From contig JAFGBV010000067.1 in NCBI GenBank assembly GCA_016932955.1, positions 1 through 9,771 of the forward strand: a stretch of 9,771 nt of DNA, given 5' to 3'. Shown piece by piece: positions 1,044 through 6,149 of this stretch. Both the position numbers and the translations under genes were made by a program. The DNA comes from Anaerolineales bacterium (lineage in GTDB: Bacteria > Chloroflexota > Anaerolineae > Anaerolineales > UBA4823). The notes beneath the pieces are model-generated. The model was given only the letters and a program-made list of their open reading frames with translations, was not told the origin of the DNA and did not search any database. The first letter of the stretch is position 1. Each line of letters begins with the position of its first letter.

Positions 1044-4000
1044 ATGGCAAAGTCACAGGTGGAGACATGGGGTCGGCAATTAGGCAGCTTGCTTGGATTG
1101 ACACTGGCGGGGCCGGGTGGGGCGATCCTGGGGAATTTGGCTGGAGGACTGGTCCAATCCATATTCCCTGGCGCAGCTGACATTGTCAAGGGCGTTTTTA
1201 CCAATTTAACTACCGAAGCGGTGCAGAAAACCGGCGAGAAGCTGGTAAAGAAACTGGACCCTGAAGAAAAGCTCAAGATCAATCATGACCTGCAGCGGGC
1301 TTTTCGGGAAGCTTTCCGGCAGGCTGTGTATGACATGGGGGGTCAGGCGTGTTTTCCCAAGATATGGGCTGAAGCGCGCCGGGACGTGCCCGAGGGGGTT
1401 GTTTATGCGTTGACGCCAGAAGGCAACCAGTTGTGGCAGGCAAAAAGCCCGCTGGCAGAGCAGATTTGCGGATGCCTGCAGGAGATGCTGGAGTGGCTGG
1501 ATAAGGAGAAAATCCTGCCCCTGGAGCCCGCCAAAGAGCAGCCGGCGGCGGACGTGCGCAGTTATCTGGACATCGAGAAGCCGTGGGAGATGAACCAGAC
1601 CTTCCTCAGCCAGGTGCTGGGGGATTTCTTCGAGCGGCATCAGCTTTTGATGGGAGAATGCACGGATTTTAAGTGTCATCTCGAGCGATACCTGCTTGAC
1701 CGCACGCTGGTACACCTGGGAGAAATCCTCAAGGCGGACACACCCGCATGGAGGGCGTTCAACCGGATGCTGTTGGAGGGGCTGCGGGATGGGGTGAAGC
1801 AATTGGGCTCGGGACAAGCAGATGTGCTGGAGCGGCTGGACTTGCTGCTGGACCAGGACAACCCGGCGGCGCTGGGACAATGGTCAGAGGGGATCGCCAC
1901 GCTCATCTCCAGCGTGGGAAAGCTGGAGAAGCACATGGATGAGCGCTTTGACGACGTCCTGGCGCAGGCGGTGGCGCAGCATGGGGAAGTGTTGGTACGC
2001 ATCGACCGGCTGATGGTAGTGAGCGGACGGATCGAGACGAAAGTAGACCGGGTGCTGCGCTTCTTGGAAGATGGGCGCTATGTGATCGAAGGCGCGCCAC
2101 TTGTTTATACGCAGCAACACCCTGAGCCGGGCGAATCGCCTTTCAAGGGGCTATTGTATTACGATGAAGAAGATGCAGAGTTGTTCTTTGGCCGGGAGGA
2201 GCTGACCGCCCAACTGGTGAATCGCTTGCAACAGCAGCGAACCTTGGTGGTGGTGGGCGCGTCGGGAAGCGGGAAGTCTTCGCTGGTAAGGGCGGGGGTG
2301 ATAGCAGCGCTGAGACGAGGGGAAGCGCTGGCGGACGGCAGCCTGCCGCCGGCGGGCAGCGAGAACTGGCAGATGGAAGTGATCACGCCGACAGCGCATC
2401 CCTTGGAAGCGCTGGTGACTTGCCTGAGCGGCGAAAAGAGCACAGCGGCAAATATCGAGGTATTACTCAACGATCTGCGTAGCAGCACTCACGGACTGGA
2501 CTGGTATGTACGCAAGCAATTCGCTAGCCAGCGTAGTACGAAGAAAAATCCGAGTCGGAAGAGTGCGGAATTTTTGCTGGTGGTGGACCAGTTCGAGGAA
2601 GTGTTCACGGCCTGCAAAGACACCGAAGAGCGCAAGGCATTTATCGACAATCTGGTGACGGCATCTGCTGGGGAAGGGCCGCTGCGACTGATCCTCGTAC
2701 TGCGGGCAGATTTTTACGCACAGTGCGGGCAGTACGAGCAACTGCGCAGCCTGCTGGAGAACGAGCAGGCCTATATCGGCCCGATGAGCCGGGCAGAACT
2801 GAAAGAGGCGATCGAGGAACCTGCCCGGCGGGGAAAGTGGCAGTTCGAAGCAGGATTGGTGGACTTGATCCTGCACGACGTAGGAGCAGACCCGGGCAGA
2901 GAGCCGGAACCGGGTGCACTGCCGTTGCTTTCGCACACGTTATTGGAAGCTTGGAAGCAACGCCGGGGGCGGATGATTACGCTGGAAAGCTATGGGGAAG
3001 CCGGGGGCGTGAGGCAGGCGATCGCCAAGACGGCGGAGAACGTCTACCACCATCTCTTGAACGAAGAGCAGCGAACGATGGCGCGGGGCATCTTCTTGCG
3101 CCTGACTGAACTGGGCGAGGGCACGCAAGACACGCGCCGCCAGGCGAGTTTGAGCGAGCTGGTGCTGCAGCCGGAGAGTGAGGCGCAGGTGAGGGTGGTG
3201 TTGAAAATATTGGCGGACGCGCGCCTGGTGACGATCACGCAGGACACGGTTGAGGTGGCGCATGAAGCCTTGATCCGCGAGTGGCCGACCTTGCGTGGCT
3301 GGCTGGAGGAGGATCGCCAGGGAATGCGCATACACCGTAATCTGACCGAAGCGGCGCTGGAATGGGCAAGATTGGAACGGGACGAGAGCCTGCTGTACCG
3401 CGGGGCGCGGCTGGCGGAGGCGCTGGAATGGTCGGCGGCCCATACTGGGCAGGCCAACCCGCTGGAGATGGAATTTGTGGAGACCTCCCGGATGAGCGAA
3501 CAGCGCCAGGCGGAGGAGCGCGAGGCGCAGCGCCAGCGGGAGTTACAGCAGGCGCGCAAGCTGCTCAACACGCAACGCCAGCGGGGACTCTTTCTCGGTC
3601 TAGGGTTGCTTGTAGCATTAATTCTAACGGGGGTGGCGTTTGCTTTCAGCCGACAGGCTTCAAATAATCTAGAGGAAGCTAGGGTAGCAGGTACATTATC
3701 GGCAGAAAATGCCAGCACTGCGGTGGCTGAAAAAGAACGTGCAGAAACAGCGCAAGCCGAGACAGAGGCTCAACGTCAGTTAGCTCTGGCATGGTTGTGG
3801 ACAGCCCAAGGGCAATTGATATTTGATCAATCAGCCAGAGGTCCATATCTGAGTGCTATCTACGAGATCGAGGCGATGCATTCAACTCCATCTTTGGAGG
3901 CTTTTGTTACATTACAACGTGTAGCCAATATTTTGCCATCTCCTGTTTCCTTGATAGAGCATGAAGCTGCAGTGCGTGTGGTTGCCTTCAGCCCAGATGG

Positions 4001-6149
4001 ACGCCGGGTGGTCTCGGGTAGTGCTGATGGGGAGATGCGGGTATGGGATGCGGCTAACGGTGTAGAGGTGGCTTGCATGTCGCACAGTCATAATGTAGAT
4101 GCAGTGGCATTCAGCCCGGATGGGCGTTGGGTGGTCTCAGCCAGCAGCTGGGACGGCACAGTGCGGGTGTGGGAAACAACCAGTGGAACAGAGTTGGTGC
4201 GTATGTCACATGATTATGACGTGCGCGCGGTTGCGTTTAGTCCGGATGGGCGCTGGGTGGTTTCGGGTAGTGGAGATGGTACAGCGCGGGTATGGGATGT
4301 GGCATCTGGCGAGGAAGTATCGCGTATGCAACATGATGATGCTGTGTATTCAGTGGAATTCAGTCCAGATGGTCACCAGGTGGTTTCAGGTAGTTGGGAT
4401 GGTACAGCGCGGGTATGGGAAGCGGCATCTGGCGAGGAAGTGTCACGCATGCAGCATGATTTTTGGGTGTTAGATGTTTCTTTCAGTTCAGATGGACGTT
4501 GGGTGGTCTCTGGAAGTGCAGATAATACGGCGAGAGTATGGGACGCATCTAGCGGAGAAGAGGTAGCACATTTTGTGCATGGCTGGTTTGTGTGGGCAGT
4601 GGCCTTTAGTCCGAATGGGCAATGGGTGGTCTCGGGCAGTGGTGATTATACAGCGCAAGTTTGGGATGCGACTACCGGGGAAGAAGTGGCGCGAATGACC
4701 CATGATGATGAAGTTGGAGCAGTAGCATTCAGTCCGGATGGTCGCCTGGTGGTTTCGGGCAGTTGGGATGGCACAGCGCGAGTTTGGGATGCGACCAGCG
4801 GGAAGGAGGATGCACGCATGATCCATGACGGTGTTGTTAATGCAGTTGCTTTCAGTCCAGATGGACGCTGGGCAGTATCTGGCAGTGCTGATAGTACGGG
4901 ACGGGTGTGGGAGACGGCCGCCAAGGTGGGAGTGTCACGCATACAGCATGATAGCTATGTTTCTGATATTGAATTCAGTCCAGATGGTCGCTGGGTGGTT
5001 TCGGGCAGTTGGGATGGTACAGCGCGTGTGTGGGATGCGAGCAGTGGAAAAGAAGTAGCGCGAATGACGCATGATGATGGAGTGGGAGCAGTAGCATTCA
5101 GTCCGGATGGTCGCTGGGTGGTTTCGGGCAGTTATGATAATACAATGCGGGTGTGGGAGGCAAATACCGGACTAGAGGTGGTGCGCATGAATCATAAGTC
5201 ATATGTGTTTGCAGTAGCCTTCAGCCCGGATGGACGTTGGGTGGTTTCTGGTAGCGGGGATGGTATGGCGCAGGTATGGGAGGTGGCTTCAGGGCAGCAG
5301 GTGTCACGTATGCAGCATGAAGGAGTAGTGGGGAGAGTGACCTTCAGCCCGGATGGACTTTGGGTGATCTCTGTAGCTGAGGACGGCGAGCACAAATTAT
5401 GGGAAGCGCGCACTGGTCTGGAAACGTCTTGTGGACAAGGTGATGAGTTTGTGCTTGATAGAGATTTCAGTCCAGATGGGAGTTGGGTAGCCTCGGGAAG
5501 CAGAGAAGGTTTAGCATGGGTGTGTGAGGTGACTACCGGGAAGGAAGTGTCACGGACGCAGTATGATGCGCTGGTAGGTGCTGTAGTTTTCAGTCCGGAT
5601 GGACGTTGGGTAGTCTCATATGGGGCGGATGGTACGGTGCGGGTGTGGGAGGCGGCTAGTGGAGTAGAAATAGCACTCATGGTGCATGCCTCAGAGGTGC
5701 GTGCGATTGCCATCAGCCCTGACGGCCGTTGGGTGGTTTCGGGTAGCGAGGATGGTGAGATGCGAGTATGGGAGGCTGCTACCGGCTTAGAAGTGTCGCA
5801 CATGCTGCATGACAATATTGTTGTTGGTGTTGCATTCAGCCCAGATGGGCGCTGGGTTGTCTCGCGCAGTGTAGATGGTATAGTGCAGATATGGGAGACG
5901 GTCAGCGGGGATAGGGTGGCGCGCCTGGAAGATGACAATGTCACTAAATATGACTTTAGCCCAGATTGGCGATGGGTAGCTTTGGCTGGTGCGGATGGAA
6001 CAGCATTGGTGTGGATGTGGCAGCCCGAGGACCTGATTGCGGAAGTCTGCCGGCGACTGCCGCGCAACCTGACGGAGGAAGAATGGGCTCAGTATTTTCC
6101 GGGTGAGGAATATCGGTTGACATGCCCGGAGCTGGGCATTGGAGAATGA
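1044..6149 (+). CDS. STAND ATPase (nSTAND1 type) with glycine-zipper N-terminus, membrane segment and 17 WD40 repeats
   Basis: This is a 1701-residue NLR-like signalling ATPase. ATG 1044 is chosen because GGGAGGA (1034-1040) lies just before it; the in-frame ATG at 1029 has no ribosome site and would place that site inside the gene. Order of parts: residues 1-290, mostly helical and unrecognised, with a GxxxGxxxG zipper at G26/G30/G34; a coiled coil at about 292-340; then the ATPase, with SPFKGL..Y..EDAELFFGRE at its start, Walker A GASGSGKS (405-412), Walker B LLVVDQFEE (D515), LRADFY (about 553-558), PGALPLLS (623-630) and winged-helix HEALIREWP (740-748). A charged coiled coil (819-847) leads into a membrane segment (848-868), a second Glu/Ala-rich helix, 17 WD40 units (973-1660) and a tail (LPRNLTEEEWAQYF..Y..TCP) that I recall from other WD40-STAND proteins. 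By family knowledge, ligand sensing by the repeats triggers ATP-dependent oligomerisation and exposes an N-terminal effector. The ligand and effector activity are not known; no TIR, nuclease or protease motif is visible. Confidence 0.93.
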   Translation: MAKSQVETWGRQLGSLLGLTLAGPGGAILGNLAGGLVQSIFPGAADIVKGVFTNLTTEAVQKTGEKLVKKLDPEEKLKINHDLQRAFREAFRQAVYDMGGQACFPKIWAEARRDVPEGVVYALTPEGNQLWQAKSPLAEQICGCLQEMLEWLDKEKILPLEPAKEQPAADVRSYLDIEKPWEMNQTFLSQVLGDFFERHQLLMGECTDFKCHLERYLLDRTLVHLGEILKADTPAWRAFNRMLLEGLRDGVKQLGSGQADVLERLDLLLDQDNPAALGQWSEGIATLISSVGKLEKHMDERFDDVLAQAVAQHGEVLVRIDRLMVVSGRIETKVDRVLRFLEDGRYVIEGAPLVYTQQHPEPGESPFKGLLYYDEEDAELFFGREELTAQLVNRLQQQRTLVVVGASGSGKSSLVRAGVIAALRRGEALADGSLPPAGSENWQMEVITPTAHPLEALVTCLSGEKSTAANIEVLLNDLRSSTHGLDWYVRKQFASQRSTKKNPSRKSAEFLLVVDQFEEVFTACKDTEERKAFIDNLVTASAGEGPLRLILVLRADFYAQCGQYEQLRSLLENEQAYIGPMSRAELKEAIEEPARRGKWQFEAGLVDLILHDVGADPGREPEPGALPLLSHTLLEAWKQRRGRMITLESYGEAGGVRQAIAKTAENVYHHLLNEEQRTMARGIFLRLTELGEGTQDTRRQASLSELVLQPESEAQVRVVLKILADARLVTITQDTVEVAHEALIREWPTLRGWLEEDRQGMRIHRNLTEAALEWARLERDESLLYRGARLAEALEWSAAHTGQANPLEMEFVETSRMSEQRQAEEREAQRQRELQQARKLLNTQRQRGLFLGLGLLVALILTGVAFAFSRQASNNLEEARVAGTLSAENASTAVAEKERAETAQAETEAQRQLALAWLWTAQGQLIFDQSARGPYLSAIYEIEAMHSTPSLEAFVTLQRVANILPSPVSLIEHEAAVRVVAFSPDGRRVVSGSADGEMRVWDAANGVEVACMSHSHNVDAVAFSPDGRWVVSASSWDGTVRVWETTSGTELVRMSHDYDVRAVAFSPDGRWVVSGSGDGTARVWDVASGEEVSRMQHDDAVYSVEFSPDGHQVVSGSWDGTARVWEAASGEEVSRMQHDFWVLDVSFSSDGRWVVSGSADNTARVWDASSGEEVAHFVHGWFVWAVAFSPNGQWVVSGSGDYTAQVWDATTGEEVARMTHDDEVGAVAFSPDGRLVVSGSWDGTARVWDATSGKEDARMIHDGVVNAVAFSPDGRWAVSGSADSTGRVWETAAKVGVSRIQHDSYVSDIEFSPDGRWVVSGSWDGTARVWDASSGKEVARMTHDDGVGAVAFSPDGRWVVSGSYDNTMRVWEANTGLEVVRMNHKSYVFAVAFSPDGRWVVSGSGDGMAQVWEVASGQQVSRMQHEGVVGRVTFSPDGLWVISVAEDGEHKLWEARTGLETSCGQGDEFVLDRDFSPDGSWVASGSREGLAWVCEVTTGKEVSRTQYDALVGAVVFSPDGRWVVSYGADGTVRVWEAASGVEIALMVHASEVRAIAISPDGRWVVSGSEDGEMRVWEAATGLEVSHMLHDNIVVGVAFSPDGRWVVSRSVDGIVQIWETVSGDRVARLEDDNVTKYDFSPDWRWVALAGADGTALVWMWQPEDLIAEVCRRLPRNLTEEEWAQYFPGEEYRLTCPELGIGE
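3585..3647 (+). other. Predicted transmembrane segment of the STAND protein
   Basis: Residues 848-868 (GLFLGLGLLVALILTGVAFAF) form an uninterrupted hydrophobic stretch of 21 residues. It is preceded by a basic patch (QARKLLNTQRQR) and followed by a Ser/Glu/Ala-rich helix. By the positive-inside rule the ATPase half would be cytoplasmic and the WD40 half outside the membrane. The assignment as a membrane helix is by eye. Confidence 0.8.
3960..6023 (+). repeat. Array of 17 WD40 units, 123-bp period, inside the STAND gene
   Basis: The unit is 41 residues, with the pattern HDxxVxAVAFSPDGRWVVS followed by GSxDGTARVWDAxSGxEVxRM. The key aromatic of SPDG falls at residues 982, 1023, 1065, 1106, 1147, 1188, 1229, 1270, 1311, 1352, 1393, 1434, 1475, 1516, 1557, 1598 and 1638, so spacing is 41 except for one 42 (an extra residue in unit 2) and one 40 (the last unit). 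The framework is almost invariant in units 3-11. Units 12, 13 and 17 are degenerate (VWD becomes LWE, VCE and VWM). The classical GH dipeptide is reduced to the His. Seventeen is not a multiple of seven, so two or more propellers of unequal size, or unused units, are expected. Similarity is also high at the DNA level. Confidence 0.93.

What the first reader, a model, noticed from the sequence alone, without database searches (positions are those of the whole stretch)
3960..6023. Bacterial NLR-like sensor with hypervariable, near-identical WD40 units (HET-D/HET-E-like design)
Aligning the 17 units in the 41-residue register shows a nearly fixed framework (AVAFSPDG, WVVSG, ARVWD), while a few columns change in almost every unit. 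Unit positions 3-4 are HN, YD, DA, FW, WF, DE, GV, SY, DG, SY; positions 6-7 are DA, RA, YS, LD, WA, GA, NA, SD; position 22 is A, G, W, E, Y, R or V. Fungal HET-D/HET-E NLRs show this same pattern, with conserved repeats and variable residues on the propeller binding face driven by selection and repeat exchange. The P-loop ATPase plus this array suggests a recognition receptor (phage or non-self) in an otherwise housekeeping neighbourhood.
Basis: partly seen in the sequence, partly recalled or inferred. Interest (0 to 1): 0.75.

Follow-up and report, generated by a model that had tools for sequence, protein, structure and literature searches.

The report
Membrane receptor with variable WD40 sensor
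A bacterial protein that joins an ATP-driven switch, one membrane-crossing helix, and what looks like an outward-facing, propeller-shaped sensor whose contact residues differ in every repeat; it belongs to a large known group, and its ligand is unknown.

Summary
Window 1044-6149 (+) encodes 1701 aa: an unnamed helical N-terminal domain, an nSTAND1 NTPase, a hydrophobic helix, then 17 WD40 units of about 41 aa. Columns 7, 9, 6 and 25 vary much as in HET-E, and all 17 units differ there. But the units are not near-identical: median identity is 54%, synonymous sites are saturated, and no excess of non-synonymous change can be shown in this gene.

Three results change the reading. (1) A hydrophobic helix sits between NTPase and array in 182 of 189 proteins examined, and 131 of 132 tails keep a cysteine pair whose members shift together; I infer an outward-facing sensor, not a cytosolic NLR. 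(2) Engine and array have different relatives: 75 proteins sharing the N-terminal domain carry another array type. (3) The window's array type turns over fast elsewhere: 19 of 20 related pairs differ at 70% or more of face residues. One pair has engines 0.4% different and faces 75% different. In the window's engine clade, 52 of 54 pairs stay below 70%.

Diverse hotspots in bacterial WD40s and an extracellular WD40 topology are already in print. Ligand, output and any phage role are untested.

The parts
1044..6149 (+). Whole gene, 1701 aa: N-terminal domain - nSTAND1 NTPase - predicted transmembrane helix - 17 WD40 units - cysteine tail. Start at 1044 preferred over 1029.
   Evidence: ORF; GGGAGG a few bases before the ATG at 1044; close homologues start at about the same residue
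1044..2138 (+). N-terminal domain, residues 1-365, almost all helical, no named family; first long helix (residues 9-40, about 1068-1163) is rich in glycine (AGxxGxxxG-like)
   Evidence: AlphaFold2 pLDDT 84.1, pTM 0.81; no Pfam family over cut-off; no PDB match at E<=0.001; glycine pattern in 65 of 79 proteins that share the domain
2139..3386 (+). nSTAND1 NTPase (PF20703), residues 366-781; Walker A GASGSGKS at 2256-2279, Walker-B-like LLVVDQFEE at 2574-2600
   Evidence: Pfam E 1.1e-127; motif positions; the Walker names are recalled
3585..3647 (+). Predicted single transmembrane helix, residues 848-868, basic on the NTPase side
   Evidence: 19-residue hydropathy 2.56; the only segment at 1.8 or more in this protein; a like segment in 182 of 189 proteins, window included
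3648..3950 (+). Linker between membrane helix and propeller
   Evidence: position only
3951..6041 (+). 17 WD40 units, predicted as two tandem propellers; the residue set at columns 6, 7, 9, 25 differs in every unit
   Evidence: model pLDDT 86.6, pTM 0.52
3933..4925 (+). First propeller, eight-bladed by structural match (model residues 12-342)
4926..6017 (+). Second propeller (model residues 343-706), blade number not settled
   Evidence: strands in the model; confidence dip at model 340-345; this half was barely covered by the fold comparison
6048..6050 (+). Codon of Cys1669, upstream member of the tail cysteine pair (CRRLPRNLTEEEW)
6123..6125 (+). Codon of Cys1694, downstream member of the tail cysteine pair

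Best explanation
It is a single-pass membrane receptor of the STAND class. The nSTAND1 NTPase and the N-terminal helical domain lie in the cytoplasm; the two WD40 propellers lie outside. A protein ligand binds across the propeller top, where each blade offers its own set of residues (columns 6, 7, 9, 25). Binding is passed through the membrane helix, the NTPase oligomerises with ATP, and the N-terminal domain gives the output, perhaps by inserting its glycine-rich helix into the membrane. The sensor array came from a faster-changing receptor class than the engine it now sits on, so the likely job is recognition of a variable partner (phage particle, competitor or kin). Shown by computation: domain order, hydrophobic helix, variable face columns, cysteine covariation, engine/array mismatch. 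Inferred: topology, array swap, ligand binding, oligomerisation, output and biological role.
For: nSTAND1 with intact P-loop and VVDQFEE motif. Hydrophobic helix in 76 of 76 N-terminal-sharing proteins (window included) and 106 of 113 others, with on average 4.2-5.3 basic residues in the 15 on the NTPase side against 1.8-2.0 on the other. Tail cysteines: downstream Cys in 132 of 132; upstream Cys in 91 of 91 'EW' tails but 1 of 41 'EC' tails, so the partner's place changes while a pair is kept (the pattern lies after the last unit in 131 of 132). Related engines carry SARP and cyclase labels, outputs that need the cytoplasm; with one helix the propeller is then outside. Strongest variation on the d-a and b-c loops of the model. 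Array type nearest P0140/P0141 (profile similarity 0.77) while 75 N-terminal-sharers reach at most 0.54; the engine pairs with P0002, support 0.97, in a 72-sequence tree. Array-type pairs: 19 of 20 with face difference >=70%; P0140/P0141 engine 0.4%, face 75% (n=56), framework 8.4% (n=487).
Against: Topology rests on hydropathy, charge and cysteines; no localisation data. 7 of 113 other proteins lack the helix; at a stricter cut 10 of 79 N-terminal-sharers and 4 of 62 array-type proteins show two or more hydrophobic segments, and 6 of 62 none. Only 132 of 239 proteins matched the tail pattern, which itself required EW or EC. The window's own array shows no sign of recent repeat exchange or excess non-synonymous change and ranks 99 of 139 in framework identity. 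In the engine clade's other members the face is kept in 52 of 54 pairs. Flanking genes look mostly like housekeeping genes. The N-terminal fold has no match, so the output is a guess.
Confidence: 0.5

Rival explanations
1. Cytosolic NLR-like immune receptor of HET-D/HET-E design: WD40 array and NTPase both in the cytoplasm, the array sensing a phage or non-self protein and triggering cell death.
For: STAND NTPase plus WD40; variable columns 7, 9 and 25 are the same as in HET-E; fungal proteins, one named HET-E-1, appear among the 120 best array matches.
Against: Hydrophobic helix between NTPase and array in 182 of 189 proteins, and covarying tail cysteines; no HET domain found; repeats not homogenised.
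Confidence: 0.15
2. Membrane receptor for a fixed physiological cue (cell wall, adhesion, own secreted protein). The face columns differ between blades because one large ligand is contacted asymmetrically, not because of rapid diversification.
For: In the window's engine clade arrays are mostly kept blade by blade: face difference median 25% at engine difference median 19.6%, 52 of 54 pairs below 70%; the 54 pairs fall into 12 linked groups, one of which supplies 28. Window synonymous sites are saturated. Flanking genes mostly housekeeping-like. Related engines carry transcription-factor and cyclase labels.
Against: The window's array is not of that clade's type, and its own type turns over quickly in 19 of 20 pairs, from 7 linked groups.
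Confidence: 0.28
3. Ordinary relaxed variation at exposed loop positions of an old WD40 array, without a recognition role for the pattern.
For: Hu et al. 2017 report conserved frameworks with diverse hotspots in highly repetitive WD40s, and purifying selection (median omega 0.19) in those with dS of 1 or more (passages). Columns 3, 38 and 35, off the face, are also variable. In the array L082 the face is not in excess: pN 0.41 against framework pS 0.40 and face pS 0.59.
Against: P0140/P0141: 775 engine residues differ at 3 places while 75% of aligned face residues differ and framework 8.4%; relaxed constraint alone would hardly do that. Some younger arrays show face pN well above framework pS: 0.43 vs 0.19 (L053), 0.61 vs 0.30 (L019), 0.54 vs 0.36 (L087).
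Confidence: 0.07

Closest known systems
nSTAND1-WD40 proteins of Chloroflexota and Actinomycetota (nSTAND1 named in Kaur et al. 2021, PMC8195603, passages)
   Same: Same NTPase family, hydrophobic helix and mostly a WD40 array; the listed best engine matches are 36-59% identical; one to seven strong nSTAND1 matches (E<1e-30) in each of 10 genomes, chosen because they hold one
   Different: N-terminal domain found in 78 of the other 238 proteins collected; array type unlike all 75 of those that have six or more units
P0140 and P0141: nSTAND1 - helix - WD40 proteins with a PF13365 (trypsin-like, name recalled) label
   Same: Nearest array type (58% identity over 93% of the array for P0140; profile similarity 0.77) and a very similar C-terminal tail with the cysteine pair
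   Different: Different N-terminal domain; more uniform units, framework identity 0.86 against 0.59
HET-D/HET-E (HNWD) receptors of Podospora (Paoletti et al. 2007, PMC1805685, passages)
   Same: Variable codons 7, 9 and 25 flanking conserved 8 and 26, in the same numbering
   Different: There HET and NACHT domains and near-identical repeats exchanged between genes; codon 27 also selected; no membrane helix mentioned in the passages I saw
Highly repetitive bacterial WD40s and WRAP propellers (Hu et al. 2017, PMC5587647; Pereira and Lupas 2022, PMC9218822; passages)
   Same: Conserved blade framework with diverse interaction hotspots (Hu); WRAP sits on a STAND ATPase (Pereira)
   Different: Their cut-offs are 70% (Hu) and 60% (Pereira) internal identity; this one has 54%
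Cyanobacterial orthocaspases with a membrane helix and WD40 (review PMC7475262, passages)
   Same: An extracellular WD40 with a cytoplasmic effector was already proposed there for six proteins
   Different: Caspase-like effector; no variable-face or cysteine analysis in the passages I saw

Membership tests
nSTAND1 STAND NTPase | PF20703 over the curated cut-off with intact P-loop | tested here: met
   427.2 bits against 27.1; GASGSGKS and LLVVDQFEE present
HET-D/HET-E (HNWD) receptors | N-terminal HET domain | tested here: not met
   residues 1-365 match no Pfam family over cut-off; only AAA_16 at E 0.11
HET-D/HET-E (HNWD) receptors | repeats homogenised by exchange (concerted evolution) | tested here: not met
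   fourfold sites mismatch 61%, median DNA identity 63%; tested inside this one array, not between genes of its genome, which is not held
HET-D/HET-E (HNWD) receptors | positive selection at codons 7, 9, 25, 27 | tested here: inconclusive
   columns 7, 9, 25 variable, 27 not; pN 0.59, pS 0.64, saturated
Highly repetitive WD40 (Hu et al. 2017) | internal identity at least 0.7 | tested here: not met
   median 0.54, best single pair 0.76; their exact rule over contiguous repeats was not reproduced
Recently amplified propeller (Pereira and Lupas 2022) | median blade identity above 60% | tested here: not met
   54% over all 17 units, 58.5% without units 12, 13, 17
PADLOC-listed anti-phage systems | match to a defence model over most of its length | tested here: inconclusive
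   HEAT-ARM_XIII E 1.4e-44 but only 186 of 1972 profile positions, in the WD40 part; mad8, mad3, AbiLi weak (2.4e-4 to 0.034) at the P-loop
Diversity-generating retroelement target | adenine-directed codon change and a reverse transcriptase nearby | tested here: inconclusive
   several bases at every position of the face codons, third positions too, which speaks against it; the window genes scanned gave no reverse transcriptase; no template search was run
Single-pass membrane receptor | propeller outside the cytoplasm | not testable with these tools
   prediction only

The most novel reading that the evidence does not exclude
An inside-out NLR: a bacterial surface receptor class in which a cytoplasmic STAND engine is driven by an outward-facing, disulfide-capped double propeller whose binding face is rewritten blade by blade, even between proteins with nearly identical engines, and whose arrays are swapped between engines. 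This gene would be a slow engine that acquired a hypervariable array, giving recognition of phages, rivals or kin outside the cell, before entry.
Probability: 0.25. Interest if true: 0.8.

Novelty: new variant of a known kind. Interest (0 to 1): 0.5.

Why it matters
If the topology is right, a large bacterial STAND-WD40 group senses the outside of the cell. That would change which ligands to look for (virion surface, neighbour cells), and tests with triggers inside the cell could miss them. The contrast between arrays that turn over (19 of 20 pairs) and arrays that are kept (52 of 54 pairs) on related engines gives a direct way to ask what drives sensor diversification in bacteria. For this single gene the evidence is modest.

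Tried and rejected

Selection caveats. The engine and array sets are the best 120 of 7357 and 7994 matches, so their disjointness and the negative correlation (-0.62, n=199) are partly built in; the comparison within 75 N-terminal-sharers is less affected. The 0.62 array-type and 70% face thresholds are mine. Pairs share proteins: 20 array-type pairs form 7 linked groups, 54 engine-clade pairs 12, one of them with 28 pairs. The 92 'other' pairs (77 with face >=70%) show that fast turnover is not special to the window's array type. The face set differs between steps: 7, 9, 25, 27 in the pair counts, 6, 7, 9, 25.

Full report
What is there. The window holds one long gene, 1044-6149 (+), 1701 aa. 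A good ribosome-binding sequence precedes the ATG at 1044. Its order is: unnamed N-terminal domain (residues 1-365), nSTAND1 NTPase (366-781, E 1.1e-127), one strongly hydrophobic helix (848-868, hydropathy 2.56), a linker, 17 WD40 units (970-1666) and a tail with two cysteines (1669, 1694). Of six flanking genes, four are a GTPase with a TGS domain and a rubrerythrin, a methylmalonyl-CoA mutase C-terminal domain and a MeaB-like GTPase. One has no NCBIfam match and one only a sub-cut-off match to an esterase model. PADLOC gives no match to four of the six and only weak ones (5.5e-6 or worse) to the two GTPases.

The observation. In a 41-residue register the most variable columns are 7, 9 and 6 (3.38, 3.22, 3.10 bits), then 3, 38, 25, 35 and 10; column 8 is invariant and 26 nearly so. 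Paoletti et al. 2007 (PMC1805685, passages) found codons 7, 9, 25 and 27 of the HET-D/HET-E repeat under positive selection, flanking conserved 8 and 26. The numbering coincides here, except that column 27 does not stand out. A set as variable as 7, 9, 25, 27 arises in 0.3% of 4-column sets. 'Near-identical' is not: median identity is 54%, and synonymous sites are saturated whatever the distance between repeats. The framework is therefore held by selection over a long time rather than by recent duplication. For this gene neither repeat exchange nor positive selection can be shown (pN 0.59, pS 0.64 at the face; 0.19 and 0.65 in the framework).

Topology. A hydrophobic segment lies between NTPase and array in 76 of 76 N-terminal-sharing proteins (window included) and 106 of 113 others, with more basic residues on the NTPase side. 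At a stricter cut 69 of 79 N-terminal-sharers and 52 of 62 array-type proteins have exactly one such segment in the whole protein. Of 239 proteins, 132 match a tail pattern ending in EW or EC. All 132 have the downstream cysteine. The upstream cysteine is present in 91 of 91 EW tails and in 1 of 41 EC tails: when one partner sits at the EC position, the other upstream site is empty. That is what a conserved disulfide predicts, and disulfides favour the outside. A review had already proposed an extracellular WD40 for six cyanobacterial orthocaspases (PMC7475262, passages). A search for six phrases such as 'transmembrane STAND' and 'periplasmic WD40' found 4 papers, of which that review was the only relevant one by title and abstract. 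This does not show absence in print.

Engine and array have different histories. The 120 best matches to residues 1-950 and to residues 960-1701 share no protein but the window itself. None of the 119 array matches shares the N-terminal domain. That split is partly built into the selection. Less biased: of 75 proteins that share the N-terminal domain and have six or more units, none exceeds 0.54 in framework-profile similarity to the window's units, against 0.77 for P0140. In a 72-sequence NTPase tree the window pairs with P0002 (support 0.97) and lies in a 42-member group of 37 N-terminal-sharers, 4 others and 1 array-type protein. P0002's repeats are of another type and its C-terminus bears TPR labels. 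An array swap is the simplest reading.

Two tempos. I compared all pairs with at least 70% engine identity. Array-type pairs (20 pairs, 21 proteins, 7 linked groups): engine difference median 22.3%, face (7, 9, 25, 27) difference median 89.5%, 19 of 20 at 70% or more; the exception is P0180/P0203 at 36%. N-terminal-sharing pairs (54 pairs, 37 proteins, 12 linked groups, one with 28 pairs): engine 19.6%, face 25%, 2 of 54 at 70% or more (P0018/P0022, P0022/P0024). The window itself is in no such pair. Other pairs (92): 77 at 70% or more, so fast turnover is not special to this array type. The sharpest case is P0140/P0141: 3 of 775 engine residues differ and the C-terminal tails are identical, yet 75% of 56 aligned face residues differ and 8.4% of 487 framework residues; repeat counts are 15 and 16. 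Both come from metagenome contigs, so misassembly must be excluded.

DNA of other arrays. In 70 open frames with six or more units (68 loci, window included; one array is held under two ids), fourfold mismatch runs from 0.07 (L053, Kibdelosporangium) to 0.74; the window has 0.61 and is 48th. In some younger arrays the face changes far more than the framework at non-synonymous sites (L053 0.43 vs 0.06; L019 0.61 vs 0.07; L087 0.54 vs 0.10). At the face itself pN/pS is about 1.1, 1.4 and 3.0 in these, but 0.7 in L082. These are comparisons between repeats of one gene, on few codons, without a formal test.

General pattern. In 139 proteins with at least 7 units found by the first profile (22 from the engine set, 117 from the array set), columns 7, 25 and 9 are on average the most variable in both sets, and the window ranks 99th in framework identity. 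Hu et al. 2017 (PMC5587647, passages) already reported conserved frameworks with diverse hotspots in highly repetitive WD40s. Pereira and Lupas 2022 (PMC9218822, passages) describe recent blade amplification, with WRAP on a STAND ATPase. The variable-face pattern as such is known.

Verdict. A real nSTAND1-WD40 receptor of a known large group, with a HET-E-like variable face but not a HET-E-type protein. Its most interesting features are the probable outward-facing sensor and the pairing of a slow-evolving engine clade with a fast-evolving array type.

Noticed in passing
P0140 and P0141 (ids): Two metagenome proteins with 3 differences in 775 engine residues but 75% different face residues and 15 versus 16 repeats; the best test case for sensor diversification found here.
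   Followed up: partly
P0057, P0090 (ids): Engines related to the window's with TPR labels (P0057), or with no WD40 label (P0090), in place of the propeller, so the C-terminal sensor seems exchangeable.
   Followed up: no
among P0079-P0120 (ids): Many related engines carry SARP transcription-activator or class 3 cyclase labels, so not all outputs of this receptor layout need be cell death.
   Followed up: no
window 4236-5320: A 369-bp (three-unit) higher-order period, 74% matches; best unit pairs 3/4 and 7/10 at 78-79% DNA identity, perhaps an old trace of block duplication.
   Followed up: partly
   Followed up: no
P0129, P0136, P0174, P0185, P0224 (ids): Fungal proteins (Ceratobasidium, Tetrapyrgos, Serendipita), one named HET-E-1, are among the 120 best matches to the bacterial array.
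   Followed up: no
L002-L019 neighbours: Single neighbour ORFs of nSTAND1 loci match PADLOC models strongly (PDC-S02 9.7e-139, TIR and type IV restriction models), and 3 of 85 neighbours are themselves WD40 proteins.
   Followed up: no
window 1044-2138: Helical N-terminal domain without a named family; 65 of 79 proteins sharing it keep a glycine-zipper-like start.
   Followed up: partly
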